In this document: in pieces, positions 4,057 to 9,990 of the stretch | Position numbering within the stretch: the stretch's first letter is position 1 | Layout: each line of letters begins with the position of its first letter | NCBI GenBank assembly: GCA_016207765.1 | Contig: JACQOY010000080.1 | Location: 1-10,093, forward strand | Direction: 5' to 3' | Length of the DNA: 10,093 nt | DNA from: Deltaproteobacteria bacterium | GTDB taxonomy: Bacteria > UBA10199 > SBBF01 | Made by a program: the position numbers and the translations under genes | Notes under the pieces: model-generated | Told to the model about the DNA's origin: nothing | Database searches by the model: none | What the model saw: only the letters and a program-made list of their open reading frames with translations

Positions 4057-4058
4057 TG

Positions 4059-4132
<74 letters not shown>

Positions 4133-5085: not shown

Positions 5086-6201
5086 TCATTTTACCAACAA
5101 CTCACAAATTTTCTGCAGTGTCGGCAGGTCCCAATTCGGCCGGGCGAGAACTTTCAAATTTTCCTCCACATGCTCCTTTTCTTTCATTCCGGCCATTGCC
5201 GCGCAAACCCCCGGCGTCGAAACCACAAATTGAAGGGCCTTTTGCGCCAGCGTCAGGTGATTCGGCAGTTGGCGGGTAAGGGATGAAGGAAGATTCAAAA
5301 GCTGGCCTTGCAAAAGAGGGGCAGAGGTCATCACCGATATTTTATGGGCCGTAGCGGCCGGAAAAATGGGACAGCTTTTCCCCTGCAATGTCTGATTCGA
5401 TATGCTCACTGCCTCAAGCATCGCCATGTTGTAGGGAAGCTGGATGGCCTGAAAATGGTGCCCGGCTCCCCCCGCCTTTTTGGCCGCCTCAACCACCCGG
5501 TCGAGCGAGATGTGTTCGGCCACTGCGGCCGGTTCGCGAAAGGCGGTCCAGGTGGCCAAACCATAACATTGGATTTTCCCCTTGGCCGCGTTTTCCTCGA
5601 AAAGGGAAAATGCCTTGGTGAGGCGGTCGTAAAAAACATCCTCCCCCGTAACCGGAAGCTGTGTTTCGGGGTTATGCAAATAATAAATGTCGATGGTATC
5701 AAGACCGAGGTTCGACAAACTAAGATCGATCTGCTCTTGAAGATAAGCGGGATGCATGCAGTGACAGGAGGCGACAATATCATCCGGCGTGATAATGCCC
5801 CGATCGAACCATTTCTTGCGGATATACGCCTCCATATTTGTCACGGGATTGGAATCGAAGGGGATAAAGCCTCCCTTGGTGCTGACCACCACCTGATTGC
5901 GCTGGATGACCTTCGATTCGATGAGCCTCTTCAAAACACGTCCAACAACTCTCTCACTTCGCTGGCACCGGTAATTGACCGCCGTATCGATGAAATTGCA
6001 TCCCCGGGAAAGGGCAAAACCCACCGTTTCTTCCAGCAATTGATCGGTTTTATCGTCGTAGGCCCCCAAATAGGTCCCAAGCCCCAAAGAGGAGACCTGC
6101 CACCCTTTAAGCATCCGCCATTTGTCGGGATGGATGCCGTTTTTATGCGCCTTTTGAAATTTTTGGGTCCCTTCAGGGGTGGCGCCTTTGGGAGGAATCA
6201 T
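5086..6201 (-). CDS. Aldo/keto reductase family protein
   Basis: A 371-residue predicted cytoplasmic NAD(P)H-dependent oxidoreductase of the TIM-barrel aldo/keto reductase superfamily; the substrate is not predictable. The N-terminal ATPEGTQKF followed by SSLGLGTYLG (37-46) matches a recognisable COG0667-like subgroup. Putative catalytic tetrad residues are D72 and Y77 (IDTAVNYR), K109 (STKGG) and a histidine in SCHCMHP (H147 or H150). Other family blocks are QRSERVVG (80-87), DTIDIYYLHNPE (168-179) and IQLPYNMAMLEA (253-264). The ATG at 6201 fits the subgroup N-terminus. No good Shine-Dalgarno sequence precedes it, and the in-frame sequence upstream has no ATG, GTG or TTG before a stop. The gene is divergent from the membrane-protein gene at 6340 and converges on the zinc-ribbon gene across the inverted repeat. 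Confidence 0.92.
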   Translation of the reverse strand: MIPPKGATPEGTQKFQKAHKNGIHPDKWRMLKGWQVSSLGLGTYLGAYDDKTDQLLEETVGFALSRGCNFIDTAVNYRCQRSERVVGRVLKRLIESKVIQRNQVVVSTKGGFIPFDSNPVTNMEAYIRKKWFDRGIITPDDIVASCHCMHPAYLQEQIDLSLSNLGLDTIDIYYLHNPETQLPVTGEDVFYDRLTKAFSLFEENAAKGKIQCYGLATWTAFREPAAVAEHISLDRVVEAAKKAGGAGHHFQAIQLPYNMAMLEAVSISNQTLQGKSCPIFPAATAHKISVMTSAPLLQGQLLNLPSSLTRQLPNHLTLAQKALQFVVSTPGVCAAMAGMKEKEHVEENLKVLARPNWDLPTLQKICELLVK

Positions 6202-6339: not shown

Positions 6340-7185
6340 ATGCACTTCGTGATGATTGTAGTCTTCATCGTCCTGATCGTACTTGGTCTTGTTATCCTCT
6401 ATCCCATCACCCCCCGTTATTTTAAGGAAACCAAGAAATTGTGGATTACGGTCGGAACCATTCTCATCCACATCGGCGCTTACGGCCTGTTATGGCTTCA
6501 TCTTCCAGGCGTTGTTTTTGTTTCTCTTCTGCTCTTCGAAGCGGGCCTGTTTGTCGTCTGGGATCCCTTTCATCTTTGCCCTCCGCCGCAAAAAAAACTT
6601 GTCAACACAATCGGTTTCATCGTCACGGCGGCGGGAGTCATCATCAGCCTTTCCATTTTCACCTCTTTTCCGCTCTGGCTTTGGGCCCTTCCCCTGATTA
6701 TCGCCCTCCTTCCTTATGTGGTTCCCCCGTTGGGCAGGCAGAGCCGGTCGATTCTGGCCCTTTCCATCATTCTGGTGATTGTCTATCTGGGCATCATGGG
6801 GCTTAACACCTGGCGTCGGCTTGTTCCGGAAGGGGAAAAAACCGTTGGCACCGGTCTTGCCGGTTCCGAAACAAAATCGGAAAAAACTCCCGCCCCCGAG
6901 ACTCCCCCGCTTCCGCCCCCTTCATTACCGGGGGAAAAAACAGTTACTCCGGCGCCGACGGTTCCTCTCGCAGGTGAACCTCCGGGGCCTGTAACCAGGG
7001 CCCTTCAGGGGATCGACAAAAGGATGCAGGAGCTGGAGGAGGAAAATGCGCGACTCAAAATGGAGCTTGAAACTCTGCGGAACGAGAACCTGAAACTGCG
7101 GGAATCAATGGTCGGGAAAAACAGGGAAATCGAACAGCAGAAAGAGCAGATTGAAGGGATCAAAGGGGCGGTGGAGAAGCTGTAG
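6340..7185 (+). CDS. Unrecognised six-span membrane protein with C-terminal coiled coil
   Basis: A 281-residue protein I cannot assign to a family. Six hydrophobic segments are visible at about 5-22, 34-54, 57-74, 88-107, 112-128 and 137-155, with an acidic E67 buried in the third. A hydrophilic linker of about 70 residues follows, rich in proline, glycine and threonine (PAPETPPLPPPSLPGEK). Residues about 225-281 form a strong heptad pattern (MQELEEENARLKMELETL and onward), predicting a coiled coil for dimerisation or partner binding, probably on the cytoplasmic side. The ATG at 6340 has no Shine-Dalgarno sequence; an ATG at 6352 (M5) is an equally possible start. Its 3' end overlaps the convergent RuBisCO-like gene by 26 bp. 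Codon use does not obviously differ from its neighbours. It is likely a real gene, given the coherent membrane plus coiled-coil layout. Confidence 0.75.
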   Translation: MHFVMIVVFIVLIVLGLVILYPITPRYFKETKKLWITVGTILIHIGAYGLLWLHLPGVVFVSLLLFEAGLFVVWDPFHLCPPPQKKLVNTIGFIVTAAGVIISLSIFTSFPLWLWALPLIIALLPYVVPPLGRQSRSILALSIILVIVYLGIMGLNTWRRLVPEGEKTVGTGLAGSETKSEKTPAPETPPLPPPSLPGEKTVTPAPTVPLAGEPPGPVTRALQGIDKRMQELEEENARLKMELETLRNENLKLRESMVGKNREIEQQKEQIEGIKGAVEKL

Positions 7186-8404
7186 CTTTTTCCCAGGCAT
7201 GCCTCAAACTCCGGGCCCCGGCGCGAGGGCCCCCGGAATGCCCGTAAATCCCCCTTCCCGCGATAAATCCAAAATCGACGTGACCAATTTTTTCAAGGAC
7301 GCGGGGGAATGTGTCCGCCGCGTCGCTTCCGCCGGGAATCGGCAGGGCCGGCGCGATATTCCCCATCGGTTCCAAACAGGCACAAATGTTTTTCAGCACG
7401 CTTTCATCGGTCATCTGCATCCGTTCCCCAAAACCGGGAAGGACGATCATGTCGGCACCGGACAAACGCTGAAGTTTCGTCAAAACCACCCCGTCAATGC
7501 CGAAATGGCTCATCCGCTCGAAAAGCGCCAATCCCGTAAAATGGCCCATTACCGGCAGTTTTGATTTCCTTCGGAGCATCCGCAGGGCGCTGATTCCGGT
7601 AAACAGGCTGTTCAACATGACCGCGTTCGCCCCGTTTTTTTCGGCCTCTTCGTAGAGCCTTTCAATTTCGTCCACTTCGTCGGTCAGGTTGGCCACCAGC
7701 ATTTTCGGCCGGCCTGTTTCTTTTTCGGCATTTTTGCGGGCGGTCCCGGCAAAACGCATCCGTTCAGCCGTTTTTGACCATTCGGCATCGGCCATCATCT
7801 CGTCGTCTTTGACGATATCGCACCCCCCCACCCAGCTTTCAAAGGCAAGCTGGGCAAAATCGCCGGGGGCAAGTCCGATGTTCGGCTTCACCACGCCGAT
7901 AAAAAACGGACGATCATGAATTTTGAGCCGTTCGCGAAGCCCCCTGACCCCAAACTGCGGCCCTTCAAACAATTTGAGGTAGCTTTCCGGAAAATGGATA
8001 TCGCAAAGTCTTATGGTTGAGATTCCGGGGCAGTAAAAAGGCCCCTCCCCGGCCATGGCGCTCAACAGATTGGGGATGCGGGGGCCAAAGTTGCGATGCG
8101 GATGAGCCACCCGGACGCGACAGAGGGTGAAGTGATTCCCCCTGATCCAGGGAAAATCGCACCTTGATTTTTTCGATGTCGAGAGAATTTCAAGGGCGAC
8201 AACCTTGGCGCCGAAACGGAGGCGCAGGTCTTCATCAACGCCGGCGCGTTGCCATTGGGCGGTGCTTTGCTCGGAACAGAGCTGGGCGGCGGCGAGTTTT
8301 GGATCGATTGAGCATTCGAAGATATAGTCGAAGAAGAGATAATCCTCTCTGGAAATATTTTTCTCGTCAGCGAAGAAGGCGGCAATGTCTTTTGGTTCAA
8401 TCAT
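7160..8404 (-). CDS. RuBisCO-like protein (form IV, RLP)
   Basis: A 414-residue homologue of the RuBisCO large subunit, last gene of the xseB-ispA-yjbQ-RLP operon. The N-terminal domain shows the AAAQLCSEQSTAQW block (38-51). The barrel has VKPNIGL (172-178), GGCDIVKDDE (193-202), GHFTG (287-291), LSGADMIVLPGFGE (314-327), PIPGGSD (355-361) and the terminal GRGIYGHSGGPRAGA. Compared with spinach RuBisCO, the K175, K201, D203, E204 and H294 equivalents are retained (K173, K199, D201, E202, H288). K177 is N175, R295 is F289, H327 is about V321 and the loop-6 K334 is about E327. CO2 fixation is therefore not expected. Known form IV proteins act as enolases, isomerases or decarboxylases, for example in methylthioadenosine salvage. 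The start overlaps the yjbQ stop as ATGA (4 bp), implying translational coupling. The family call is strong; the substrate is unknown. Confidence 0.93.
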   Translation of the reverse strand: MIEPKDIAAFFADEKNISREDYLFFDYIFECSIDPKLAAAQLCSEQSTAQWQRAGVDEDLRLRFGAKVVALEILSTSKKSRCDFPWIRGNHFTLCRVRVAHPHRNFGPRIPNLLSAMAGEGPFYCPGISTIRLCDIHFPESYLKLFEGPQFGVRGLRERLKIHDRPFFIGVVKPNIGLAPGDFAQLAFESWVGGCDIVKDDEMMADAEWSKTAERMRFAGTARKNAEKETGRPKMLVANLTDEVDEIERLYEEAEKNGANAVMLNSLFTGISALRMLRRKSKLPVMGHFTGLALFERMSHFGIDGVVLTKLQRLSGADMIVLPGFGERMQMTDESVLKNICACLEPMGNIAPALPIPGGSDAADTFPRVLEKIGHVDFGFIAGRGIYGHSGGPRAGARSLRHAWEKATASPPPL

Positions 8405-8832
8405 GATTCAACACCAATTATTGTCACATTCACCTGCCTCGATTTCCTCGGCCCGTCCAATTCCACGAAAAAAATCCTCTGCCAGGCACCGAGGTTTAAT
8501 TGTCCGTTCTCCAGAACAATTGTTTCGGAAGTACTCATGAAATATTTCAGAAGATGGCTGTGGGCGTTTGATCGGCCGTCGATCGCTTCATGATTGTGCG
8601 CATAGCGGGCCTTTGGATCAGCCAGGGACGCGGCAAACCGGACAAAATCTTCGTGCAACCGGCCGCATTTTTCATTGATGGAAACAGCGGCCGTTGTATG
8701 CAGACTCGTCACCACAACGAGCCCGTTTTTCAAGGGTTGCCGTTCCACCAAGGTTTGAACCTGTGGGGTGATATCGATCAGTTCAATCGGGTTTTGGGAG
8801 CCGATTTTCAGGATTTCGCTTTTTATCATCAT
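8401..8832 (-). CDS. yjbQ: YjbQ-family protein (UPF0047; secondary thiamine-phosphate synthase-like)
   Basis: A 143-residue single-domain protein of the YjbQ/UPF0047 family, some members of which have weak thiamine-phosphate synthase activity, joining the pyrimidine and thiazole halves of thiamine. Conserved blocks are SLHTTAAVSINE (43-54), the histidine-rich RYAHNHEAIDG and NAHSHLL (about 76-95), and the signature LNLGAWQRIFFVELDGPR (112-129). It overlaps ispA by 4 bp upstream (ATGA) and the RuBisCO-like gene by 4 bp downstream. A second ATG at 8829 stands 4 nt from the AAGGA ribosome site, while the ATG at 8832 is only 1 nt from it. The true start may therefore be 8829, shortening the protein by one residue. 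The family call is firm; thiamine synthesis as the main physiological role is uncertain even in studied members. Confidence 0.92.
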   Translation of the reverse strand: MMIKSEILKIGSQNPIELIDITPQVQTLVERQPLKNGLVVVTSLHTTAAVSINEKCGRLHEDFVRFAASLADPKARYAHNHEAIDGRSNAHSHLLKYFMSTSETIVLENGQLNLGAWQRIFFVELDGPRKSRQVNVTIIGVES

Positions 8833-9755
8833 TTCCTTCTCTCCACAATAAACTCGGCAATCGCGCGAAGCGCATCCGCCTCCGGGCCAAAACCATTGAG
8901 CGATCCCAGGGCCTCTTCTTTCGCAATATTGGCCGCCTTTTTGGCCCCTTCCATGCCCATTACCGAGGGATAGGTCGCCTTCTTGTTTTCTGCGTCACTC
9001 CCGATATCCTTCCCCAAATCGCTCCCACCAACAATATCAAGGATGTCGTCGGCAATTTGGAAGGCCAACCCCACCGCCTCGCCGTAAGATTCGATAGCCG
9101 CCAGCCGGCCGGAGCCCGGCTGGCAGGCTCCGGCCGCCAGTTTTTGATCCGTTGCCTCCGCCATCAACGCGCCGCTCAAGACCGATGCCGCAATCAATCG
9201 CCCTGTTTTCAATTGATGCAGTTTGCGAAGGGCCGGGAGATCGATGGCGTTCCCTTCAGCTTCCATATCAAGCACCTGACCACCCACCATCCCCATCGAA
9301 CCGGTGGCGCTGGCGATGTGGTAGATGATTTCGAGCACGCAACGCGGGTCGCGCAGGGAGTCTTTGAGCTTTCCCAGAACCAGAAACGCCTGCGACAACA
9401 ATGCGTCCCCCGCCAAAATAGCCACCGCCTCGCCGAAAACTTTGTGATTCGTGGGGACTCCCCTGCGAAGACTGTCGTCGTCCATCGCCGGAAGATCGTC
9501 GTGGATCAGCGAAAAGGTGTGAATCATCTCCAAGGCGCAGGCGATGGGAAGAACCTCCCGCCGGCCCCCGCCGCACGCCTCGGAGGCGGCCATGCAAAGA
9601 ATCGGACGAATCCGTTTGCCGCCGGCAAAAATGCTGTAGCGCATCGCCTCGTGTACCTTGGGAGGATGAAGCTCCTTTTTGGGCAACGACGAATCAAGCG
9701 CCTCGTTCACCAGCGCCTGGCATTCTTTGAAATAATGTTCGAGATCAAATTGCAT
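8829..9755 (-). CDS. ispA: Polyprenyl (farnesyl/geranylgeranyl) diphosphate synthase
   Basis: Condenses isopentenyl diphosphate with allylic diphosphates to make C15-C20 isoprenoid precursors. With the ATG at 9755 the protein has 308 residues. The first aspartate-rich motif is HDDLPAMDD (86-93 region), the substrate-binding block is AGGKRIRP (44-51), GGQVLDME lies near 158-165, and the second aspartate-rich motif is FQIADDILD (D236, D237, D240). Chain length (FPP or GGPP) cannot be read securely from the sequence. A TTG at 9767 would add four residues; I prefer the ATG because MQFDLEHYF is a typical family N-terminus, but neither start has a ribosome site. It overlaps xseB by 11 bp (ATG) or 23 bp (TTG), the classic xseB-ispA pairing. 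Residues about 209-220 are a 12-residue in-frame insertion made by a palindromic DNA element, in a loop before the second motif; catalytic motifs are intact. Confidence 0.95.
   Translation of the reverse strand: MQFDLEHYFKECQALVNEALDSSLPKKELHPPKVHEAMRYSIFAGGKRIRPILCMAASEACGGGRREVLPIACALEMIHTFSLIHDDLPAMDDDSLRRGVPTNHKVFGEAVAILAGDALLSQAFLVLGKLKDSLRDPRCVLEIIYHIASATGSMGMVGGQVLDMEAEGNAIDLPALRKLHQLKTGRLIAASVLSGALMAEATDQKLAAGACQPGSGRLAAIESYGEAVGLAFQIADDILDIVGGSDLGKDIGSDAENKKATYPSVMGMEGAKKAANIAKEEALGSLNGFGPEADALRAIAEFIVERRK
8834..8838 (-). promoter_or_regulatory. Ribosome binding site of yjbQ inside the ispA 3' end
   Basis: AAGGA on the minus strand within the last ispA codons, 1 nt before the ATG at 8832 and 4 nt before the ATG at 8829. 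Its spacing favours the second ATG. It is the only clear Shine-Dalgarno sequence in this four-gene operon. Confidence 0.5.
9097..9140. repeat. 36-bp in-frame palindromic insertion in ispA with 8-bp direct repeats
   Basis: GCCGCCAG occurs at 9097-9104 and 9133-9140, exactly 36 bp (12 codons) apart. Between and across them lie two perfect overlapping inverted repeats. CCAGCCGG (9101-9108) pairs with CCGGCTGG (9116-9123). CGGCCGGAGCC (9106-9116) pairs with GGCTCCGGCCG (9126-9136). The two hairpins cannot form together. The encoded peptide reads LAA-GACQPGSGR-LAA, and removing one 36-bp unit restores a normal family spacing. Confidence 0.75.
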
Positions 9756-9990
9756 TGTTTTCGTCAATTTTTAGCGCCGTCTTTTTGCCCGTCTGATCTT
9801 TCATCAACATTTCCACTTTCCCTTCCGCCTCATTGAGTTTCTGTTCGCAAAACCGGGTCAGTTCCATTCCCTCTTCAAAGACCTTAAGCGAATCCTCCAG
9901 CGAAAGATCCCCCCCTGTAAGCGCCTCCACCATCTTTTCAAGCTGGGCCATCGCCTGTTCGAATTTGAGGGTTTTTGATGTTTTTGACAT
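9745..9990 (-). CDS. xseB: Exodeoxyribonuclease VII small subunit
   Basis: An 81-residue small subunit that binds several copies per XseA large subunit to form exonuclease VII, a single-strand DNA nuclease. The typical helical-hairpin sequence is complete: FEQAMAQLEKMVEAL (10-24), GDLSLEDSLKVFEEGMEL (27-44) and CEQKLNEAEGKVEML (48-62), followed by a polar tail. It is the first gene of the minus-strand run, and its 3' end overlaps the ispA start, the common xseB-ispA arrangement. No xseA is visible in the 100 bp to the window edge. No Shine-Dalgarno sequence precedes the ATG at 9990; instead a perfect 8-bp palindrome ends 7 nt upstream. Identification is secure from length, motif pattern and context. 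Confidence 0.94.
   Translation of the reverse strand: MSKTSKTLKFEQAMAQLEKMVEALTGGDLSLEDSLKVFEEGMELTRFCEQKLNEAEGKVEMLMKDQTGKKTALKIDENNAI

What the first reader, a model, noticed from the sequence alone, without database searches (positions are those of the whole stretch)
7160..9990. RuBisCO-like protein and YjbQ occupy the dxs position of an xseB-ispA operon
Seen: four minus-strand genes overlap one another (11-23, 4 and 4 bp), so they are very probably co-transcribed and translationally coupled: xseB, ispA, yjbQ, RLP. Known: in enterobacteria ispA is followed by dxs, whose product DXP feeds isoprenoids and thiamine. In Rhodospirillum rubrum a form IV RuBisCO-like protein isomerises 5-methylthioribulose-1-phosphate in a route that returns methylthioadenosine carbon to DXP and isoprenoids. 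YjbQ members can make thiamine phosphate, whose thiazole half also derives from DXP. Inference: this operon may tie an RLP-based methylthioadenosine shunt or another sugar-phosphate reaction to prenyl diphosphate and thiamine supply. The link rests on gene order only.
Basis: partly seen in the sequence, partly recalled or inferred. Interest (0 to 1): 0.75.

Follow-up and report, generated by a model that had tools for sequence, protein, structure and literature searches.

The report
RuBisCO-like protein in isoprenoid operon
In a little-known bacterial lineage, a RuBisCO relative of unknown function and a small partner protein sit where the first gene of isoprenoid (terpene) synthesis is usually found, and that gene was not found in most of these genomes, so the pair may help make the starting molecule another way, which a simple enzyme test could settle.

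Summary
Confirmed: xseB-ispA-yjbQ-RLP are four overlapping minus-strand genes. The order is old: 26 of 46 genomes of the window's class carry this RLP, 23 of them with ispA next to it (one has two small genes between), 17 with yjbQ in the middle. The isoprenoid link survives. No DXS was found in the 84%-complete genome; in the class DXS passes its cut-off in 5 of 46, DXP reductoisomerase in 43, HMG-CoA reductase in 0. yjbQ precedes RLP in 55 of 77 named loci outside the class, and an idi-like gene follows RLP in 20 (6 of 6 tested are IPP isomerase). Best reading, inferred: RLP and a dedicated YjbQ turn a ketose-1-phosphate, most likely 5-deoxyribulose-1-phosphate, into DXP. Against it: RLP does not track DXS absence (p=0.38), and 16 genomes show neither RLP nor any dxs piece.

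The parts
7160..8404 (-). RuBisCO-like protein, form IV, IV-Photo type, 414 aa
   Evidence: 52%/51% identity to C. tepidum RLP (1tel) and R. palustris RLP2 (2qyg); tree; active-site pattern shared with 23 further class rows and 77 other rows
8401..8832 (-). YjbQ / UPF0047 protein of the RLP-linked type (D85, R87)
   Evidence: PF01894 118.9 bits, TIGR00149 105.9 bits over cut-off; R87 in 99% of 73 RLP-linked YjbQ and in none of five solved YjbQ
8829..9767 (-). IspA, farnesyl diphosphate synthase (TTG start; the in-frame ATG would give 8829-9755)
   Evidence: NF045485 357 bits over cut-off
9745..9990 (-). XseB, exodeoxyribonuclease VII small subunit
   Evidence: TIGR01280 77.7 bits over cut-off
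5086..6201 (-). Aldo-keto reductase beyond the operon's 3' end; directly behind RLP in L119 and L127; role in the module uncertain
   Evidence: PF00248 108 bits; same-strand neighbour with gaps of 12 and -4 bp in L119 and L127
6340..7185 (+). Convergent gene of no known family whose 3' end overlaps the RLP 3' end (7160-7185); not part of the operon
   Evidence: no Pfam or NCBIfam match at 0.001

Best explanation
The window holds an isoprenoid operon in which a IV-Photo RuBisCO-like protein and a dedicated YjbQ work as a pair (shown: gene order and co-conservation; the pairing of function is inferred). The RLP keeps the catalytic lysine and the metal-binding lysine, aspartate and glutamate of RuBisCO but not lysine 334 needed for carboxylation, so it should enolise or isomerise a sugar phosphate and not fix CO2 (residues shown; chemistry inferred). 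Its far-end (P2) phosphate site has become apolar while the P1 site has gained arginines, which fits a ketose 1-phosphate with an apolar other end (inferred; roles of residues recalled). I think the substrate is most likely 5-deoxyribulose 1-phosphate, made from 5'-deoxyadenosine by MtnP and MtnA or from DHAP and acetaldehyde by an aldolase, and the product DXP, by the same 1,3-isomerisation that DeepYkr RLPs carry out on the methylthio analogue. YjbQ would handle an intermediate or by-product (its step is not known). DXP then enters the MEP pathway next to IspA, adding to or standing in for the missing DXS.
For: RLP next to ispA in 23 of 26 RLP-bearing class genomes. A second isoprenoid link in other bacteria: the gene directly after RLP forms one cluster in 20 gammaproteobacterial, mostly Chromatiaceae, loci (gap -4 bp in five of the six printed), and six of six members tested are IPP isomerase over cut-off. 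yjbQ upstream of RLP on the same strand in 55 of 77 named loci outside the class, 46 of them with gaps of -4 to +11 bp; R87 in 99% of 73 RLP-linked YjbQ and in 0 of 5 solved ones. dxs over cut-off in 5 of 46 class genomes, dxr in 43, HMG-CoA reductase in 0; the same models pass in 10, 9 and 5 of 14 control genomes. mtnP over cut-off in 36 of 46, the window's genome included, mtnA in 40 of 46. In 24 class and 77 other RLPs K175, K201, D203, E204 and H294 are kept in all 101; R295 and S379 (P2 side) are replaced in all, H327 in at least 100; K334 and G404 (P1 side) are R in all. Lipoyl synthase, a radical-SAM enzyme that yields 5'-deoxyadenosine (recalled), comes after idi in 9 loci of the map (one representative tested). 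In Chlorobi the neighbours include an LsrF-type thiolase (513.8 bits, cut-off 297) and a RhaD-type aldolase/dehydrogenase, whose substrates are related 5-deoxypentulose phosphates (recalled).
Against: RLP does not track dxs loss (p=0.38). Sixteen of 46 class genomes show neither RLP nor dxs (17 if the dxs fragment of G030 is not counted), yet 15 of the 16 have dxr, so another DXP source must exist there. G005, in the window's family, has xseB-ispA, the convergent gene and the AKR but no yjbQ-RLP between, and no RLP or dxs over cut-off anywhere. RLP and class II aldolase are not complementary (8 of 26 against 7 of 20, p=1.0). 5'-deoxyadenosine alone is probably too small a flux to be the only DXP source (recalled estimate). 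yjbQ was not found beside RLP in 22 of the 77 named loci (12 Chlorobi, 7 Chloroflexota, 3 others; view too short in three) nor in 6 ispA-RLP class loci. The divergent RLP of G037 does not share the residue pattern. No substrate has been tested.
Confidence: 0.32

Rival explanations
1. The RLP-YjbQ pair does something unrelated to DXP (the still unknown IV-Photo function, linked in C. tepidum to sulfur oxidation and stress), and ispA and idi are neighbours for regulatory or historical reasons.
For: No association between RLP and dxs loss; genomes without both exist; Miller et al. 2018 state that the C. [quoted passage not shown] palustris RLP2 remains to be found (passages); in Chromatiaceae the pair lies near puf genes, where genes cluster for many reasons.
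Against: Two separate isoprenoid neighbours (ispA, idi) in distant lineages, with close or overlapping genes kept across large divergence.
Confidence: 0.42
2. The RLP makes a 1-deoxy-pentodiulose phosphate from ribulose 5-phosphate or ribulose bisphosphate by beta-elimination, a RuBisCO side reaction (recalled), and a reductase (the nearby AKR, or another dehydrogenase) reduces it to DXP, as in the RibB and YajO bypasses.
For: AKR directly behind RLP in L119 and L127 and near it in the window; a short-chain dehydrogenase cluster directly behind RLP in 11 Chlorobi loci (one representative tested); RibB, AceE and YajO suppressor routes are listed in PMC10663253 (passages); one locus (L079) has 6-phosphogluconate dehydrogenase behind RLP.
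Against: Residues of the P2 phosphate site are replaced (R295 and S379 in all 101 rows), which argues against a substrate with a C5 phosphate; the AKR is near RLP or ispA only in the window, L117, L119, L127 and the RLP-less L187 and has no solved relative at 1e-15.
Confidence: 0.08
3. One reading: the RLP is the methylthioribulose-1-phosphate isomerase of a methylthioadenosine-isoprenoid shunt.
For: mtnP and an mtnA fragment occur in the genome; no dxs found; Miller et al. 2018 cite earlier work in which R. palustris RLP2 slowly converted a small part of the substrate.
Against: IV-Photo and not DeepYkr by nearest relatives and residues; no detectable activity of R. palustris RLP2 and no phenotype in the shunt (PMC5893883, passages).
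Confidence: 0.06
4. The pair serves thiamine: YjbQ makes thiamine phosphate and the RLP supplies or rearranges a thiazole precursor.
For: YjbQ scores over the cut-off of the family that NCBI names secondary thiamine-phosphate synthase; DXP also feeds the thiazole (recalled).
Against: NCBI marks that family as a hypothetical equivalog, and RLP-linked YjbQ differ at R87 from five solved ones; no thiamine gene appeared among the neighbours identified, but only a small part of the neighbours was identified.
Confidence: 0.07

Closest known systems
IV-Photo RubisCO-like proteins (C. tepidum RLP, R. palustris RLP2)
   Same: 51-52% identity over nearly the full length, same substitutions at the active-site positions compared, yjbQ upstream in the four Rhodopseudomonas loci too
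   Different: Described as coming from phototrophs (PMC7844134, passage); here in an ispA operon of an uncultivated lineage with records titled Deltaproteobacteria. Whether this lineage is phototrophic was not tested.
DeepYkr RLP of the methylthioadenosine-isoprenoid shunt (R. rubrum, R. palustris RLP1)
   Same: An RLP proposed to feed DXP; mtnP and an mtnA fragment present in the genome
   Different: Not among the nearest relatives; the one IV-Photo member whose test I saw, RLP2, lacks the activity (PMC5893883); cupin not searched
xseB-ispA-dxs-yajO operon of E. coli (recalled)
   Same: xseB, ispA and, in L119 and L127, an aldo-keto reductase in the same order
   Different: yjbQ-RLP stand where dxs would be; no NCBIfam model assigns the AKR
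Unknown Dxs alternatives inferred by a 2023 survey (PMC10663253)
   Same: dxr without Dxs and without the mevalonate pathway; that survey counts 181 of 4,400 species missing only Dxs, 172 of them without either gene of the MTA shunt (section read)
   Different: That survey used representative genomes and sought only the MTA-shunt RLP and cupin; here mostly draft genomes and the IV-Photo RLP

Membership tests
IV-Photo RLP | Best sequence matches and tree position with C. tepidum RLP and R. palustris RLP2 | tested here: met
   best PDB matches at 1e-148 to 1e-143, next RLP (3nwr) at 1e-53; 104 rows separated from two outgroups, SH-aLRT 99
IV-Photo RLP | Active-site substitution pattern of the group | tested here: met
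   each of 19 positions in the window holds a residue seen in other rows of the group
IV-Photo RLP | Occurs in a phototroph | not tested
DeepYkr RLP (MTRu-1P isomerase) | Sequence groups with R. rubrum RLP and R. palustris RLP1 | tested here: inconclusive
   no DeepYkr sequence was put in the tree; the nearest solved RLPs are IV-Photo, which speaks against it
MTA-isoprenoid shunt | mtnP and mtnA in the genome | tested here: met
   mtnP 331 bits over cut-off; mtnA as a fragment of 161 aa at a contig edge, 250.8 bits, under cut-off 279
MTA-isoprenoid shunt | cupin MTXu-5P sulfurylase | not tested
   not searched
YjbQ / UPF0047 | Family profile over curated cut-off and conserved residues | tested here: met
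   H45, E54, H79, H93, D126, R129 kept
DXS replacement | dxs absent while the rest of the MEP pathway is present | tested here: inconclusive
   no dxs over cut-off and dxr present in the 84% complete genome; ispD to ispH not searched; RLP presence not tied to dxs absence
DXS replacement | Forms DXP in vitro or rescues a dxs mutant | not testable with these tools
   needs enzyme assay or complementation
RuBisCO (carboxylating) | Lysine 334 and the P2 phosphate residues | tested here: not met
   K334 to R328, R295 to F289, H327 to V321, S379 to G358

The most novel reading that the evidence does not exclude
IV-Photo RLP plus its own YjbQ is a DXS-independent source of DXP, a 5-deoxypentulose-1-phosphate 1,3-isomerase system that can stand in for DXS in bacteria without it and adds to DXS in phototrophs. 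It would give the IV-Photo clade and the YjbQ family a function at one stroke and fill part of the published Dxs gap.
Probability: 0.22. Interest if true: 0.87.

Novelty: new variant of a known kind. Interest (0 to 1): 0.62.

Why it matters
Three open questions meet here: the function of IV-Photo RLPs (left open for RLP2 in PMC5893883), the real role of YjbQ, and how MEP-pathway bacteria live without Dxs (172 of 181 such species unexplained in PMC10663253). A conserved yjbQ-RLP pair, two isoprenoid neighbours in distant lineages, and a class in which Dxs is rare though DXP reductoisomerase is nearly universal turn them into one assay. The one search of the held papers for both names found no paper with YjbQ and RubisCO-like together.

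Tried and rejected
Considered and set aside: (a) dxs hidden as a divergent gene: the split C55 pair of the window's genome and the hits examined in five other dxs-less genomes (G043, G038, G045, G026, G001) score best as transketolase, narrowly so in G045 (212.5 against 200.4 bits), and over a transketolase cut-off in the two full-length ones (G043, G038), while the G029 control scores 792 bits as dxs. The hits of the other dxs-less genomes were not examined in this way. (b) Incompleteness as the reason for dxs absence: dxr is found in 43 of the same 46 genomes. (c) Mevalonate pathway: HMG-CoA reductase in 0 of 46. (d) A second RLP or RuBisCO in RLP-less genomes: PF00016 finds the same 26 genomes. 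(e) RLP and class II aldolase as alternative sinks for the MtnA product: no complementarity. (f) Phototroph RLPs nested inside the class RLPs, as the quick tree drew it: a tree with the class as one clade was better by 13.7 log units, p-AU 0.72, so no direction of transfer is claimed. (g) AKR as YajO: no NCBIfam assignment, no solved relative at 1e-15. (h) Promoter and terminator scan: counts not notably above shuffles (1 against a mean of 2.8; 9 against 8.0), so no transcript ends are claimed.

Limits: the 80 named loci are the best 80 of 201 confirmed and thus a biased sample. The simple gene caller missed RLP in some loci, so gene-order counts come; gene starts are the script's guesses. L138 (G037, a class genome) was wrongly labelled with the named group and left out of the class rows.
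Full report
What is there. The window is one whole contig of a draft genome (1.89 Mb, 256 contigs, 84% complete). On the minus strand xseB (9745-9990), ispA (8829-9767), yjbQ (8401-8832) and a RuBisCO-like protein (7160-8404) overlap by 23 or 11, 4 and 4 bp. The families are clear, except that no NCBIfam RuBisCO or RLP model reaches its cut-off for the RLP. The plus-strand gene 6340-7185 overlaps the RLP's 3' end and matches no family; an aldo-keto reductase lies behind it at 5086-6201.

Which RLP. The nearest solved proteins are C. tepidum RLP (52%) and R. palustris RLP2 (51%); the next RLP is far away (1e-53 against 1e-143). Miller et al. 2018 (PMC5893883, passages seen) call both Photo RLPs; [quoted passage not shown] In a tree of 106 rows the window's RLP lies with the class and phototroph rows, apart from two outgroups. 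At 19 positions of the RuBisCO active site, 24 class rows (window included) and 77 other rows share nearly one pattern: E60, W66, K175, K201, D203, E204, H294, G380 and G403 kept in all 101; K177 to N, N123 to E, K334 to R, G381 to S and G404 to R in all; T65 to Q in 99; R295 to F in 100 and L in 1; S379 to G or A in all; H327 to I in all 77 others and to I, G, V or L in 23 of 24 class rows (the last not shown); H298 varies. The divergent RLP of G037 departs from this pattern. The role of each position is recalled. The pattern says enolisation yes, carboxylation no; phosphate bound at P1, none at P2.

Conservation of the order. A class-wide search found the RLP in 26 of 46 genomes (the same 26 by the Pfam profile). 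Seventeen have xseB-ispA-yjbQ-RLP, six ispA-RLP without yjbQ (one, L123, with two toxin-antitoxin-like genes between), one yjbQ-RLP away from ispA, two RLP alone. Three of these genomes match named contigs by length: Deltaproteobacteria bacterium CG11_big_fil_rev_8_21_14_0_20_47_16, Deltaproteobacteria bacterium NC_groundwater_354_Ag_B and bacterium SKS1.bin41.

Outside the class. One scan of named genomes kept the best 80 of 201 RLP loci, 77 of them outside the class. In 55 of the 77 yjbQ lies upstream on the same strand, 46 with gaps of -4 to +11 bp and nine with 56 to 383 bp: purple sulfur and non-sulfur bacteria, Gemmatimonadota and one Chloroherpetonaceae. It was not found in 22: 12 other Chlorobi, 7 Chloroflexota, one Desulfobacterales, L045 and L079; in L079, L091 and L093 little or no sequence lies upstream. 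R87 of the window's YjbQ is kept in 99% of 73 RLP-linked YjbQ; five solved YjbQ have a gap (three) or E (two) there. So RLP-linked YjbQ look like a subfamily, but the comparison set is small. In 20 gammaproteobacterial loci the next gene after RLP forms one cluster; six of six members tested are IPP isomerase over cut-off. In 9 loci of the map the next gene is of a cluster whose tested representative is lipoyl synthase, and reaction-centre genes lie upstream in many (two representatives tested). In Chlorobi the neighbours are an LsrF-type thiolase, a RhaD-type aldolase/dehydrogenase and a short-chain dehydrogenase (representatives tested).

The MEP pathway in the class. dxr is over its cut-off in 43 of 46 genomes, HMG-CoA reductase in 0 of 46, dxs in 5 of 46 (G002, G003, G013, G028, G029) with a likely fragment in G030 (330 bits). 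In the 14 control genomes the three models pass in 9, 5 and 10. The window's genome has dxr and no dxs; its best dxs hit is a split transketolase, and five further hits tested elsewhere also score best as transketolase, narrowly in G045. mtnP is over cut-off in 36 of 46 including the window's genome; mtnA in 40 of 46, in the window's genome only as a fragment at a contig edge. ispD to ispH were not searched. A 2023 comparison of 4,400 species found 181 missing Dxs only, 9 of which carry one or both genes of the methylthioadenosine shunt (PMC10663253, section 3.1 read, other passages).

Results against the DXP reading. RLP-bearing genomes have dxs in 2 of 26, the others in 4 of 20 counting the fragment (p=0.38; among genomes at least 90% complete and at most 5% contaminated 2 of 18 against 2 of 11, p=0.62). 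Sixteen genomes show neither gene, 15 of them with dxr; nine of the sixteen are in the high-quality set. In G005, in the window's family, xseB-ispA, the convergent gene and the AKR are there but yjbQ-RLP is missing between them. So the RLP cannot be the only DXP source in the class; it is at best one of several, or an addition. Class II aldolase, another sink for the MtnA product, is found in 8 of 26 and 7 of 20, no complementarity. In 9 of 20 fetched ispA loci without RLP in the slot a zinc dehydrogenase lies next to or near ispA, in none of the RLP loci; its role is unknown.

How it most likely works. R. rubrum RLP and R. palustris RLP1 isomerise 5-methylthioribulose-1-phosphate to 1-methylthioxylulose-5-phosphate (PMC4958253, PMC5893883, passages). 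The same move on 5-deoxyribulose-1-phosphate would give DXP at once, without a cupin (inference). That substrate arises from 5'-deoxyadenosine by MtnP and MtnA: R. rubrum MtnP accepts 5'-deoxyadenosine, and an isomerase product 5-deoxyribulose-1-phosphate has been proposed (PMC6302742, section read). A ketose-1-phosphate with an apolar end fits the altered P1 and lost P2 site, and the failure of RLP2 on the methylthio analogue does not exclude it. Shown are gene order, residue pattern and pathway gene content; substrate, product and the YjbQ step are inferred.

Novelty. The pieces are known families. New here, as far as the held papers show (no paper with both YjbQ and RubisCO-like; nothing on the point in the titles and abstract starts listed), are the yjbQ-RLP pair as a conserved unit, its ispA and idi neighbours, and its spread in a class where dxs is rare. 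The main RLP review (Tabita et al. 2007) and the R. rubrum shunt paper (Erb et al. 2012) were not held, so earlier notice there cannot be excluded.

Noticed in passing
class of the window's genome, G000-G045: dxs over cut-off in only 5 of 46 genomes although dxr is in 43 and HMG-CoA reductase in none; sixteen genomes have neither dxs nor RLP, so a further DXP source must exist.
   Followed up: partly
L188-L191, L197-L199, L202, L205: In 9 of 20 fetched ispA loci of genomes without RLP in the slot, a zinc-dependent dehydrogenase of the threonine/polyol type lies next to or near ispA, on either strand; none was found in L114-L139 and L140 at 1e-8. Several genomes share a family, so these are not independent cases.
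   Followed up: partly
L187 (G005:C31): Close relative with ispA 82% and AKR 76% identical in which yjbQ-RLP is missing between ispA and the convergent gene.
   Followed up: yes
L123:1858-2557: Two small genes between ispA and RLP resembling an HI0074-family and an MntA-type toxin-antitoxin pair (the MntA match is under its cut-off).
   Followed up: no
window 4058-4132: tRNA-Met (CAT) on the minus strand between rpoD and a CT398-like zinc-ribbon gene.
   Followed up: no
L070, L075, L084, L096, L108, L109, L112: In Chlorobium-type loci RLP has, by cluster, an LsrF-type thiolase and a RhaD-type aldolase/dehydrogenase upstream and a short-chain dehydrogenase downstream; yjbQ was not found there.
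   Followed up: partly
L069, L073, L077, L078, L087, L099, L111 (Chloroflexota) and L097 (Desulfobacterales): IV-Photo-like RLPs in MAGs of Chloroflexota and Desulfobacterales; xylose-isomerase-like sugar enzymes lie near RLP in the Chloroflexota loci.
   Followed up: no
L207, L212 (G029, G030): In two genomes dxs or its fragment is followed by a class II aldolase gene.
   Followed up: no
window 6340-7185: By eye a membrane-type protein with a charged, coiled-coil-like tail; no family match; convergent with RLP.
   Followed up: no
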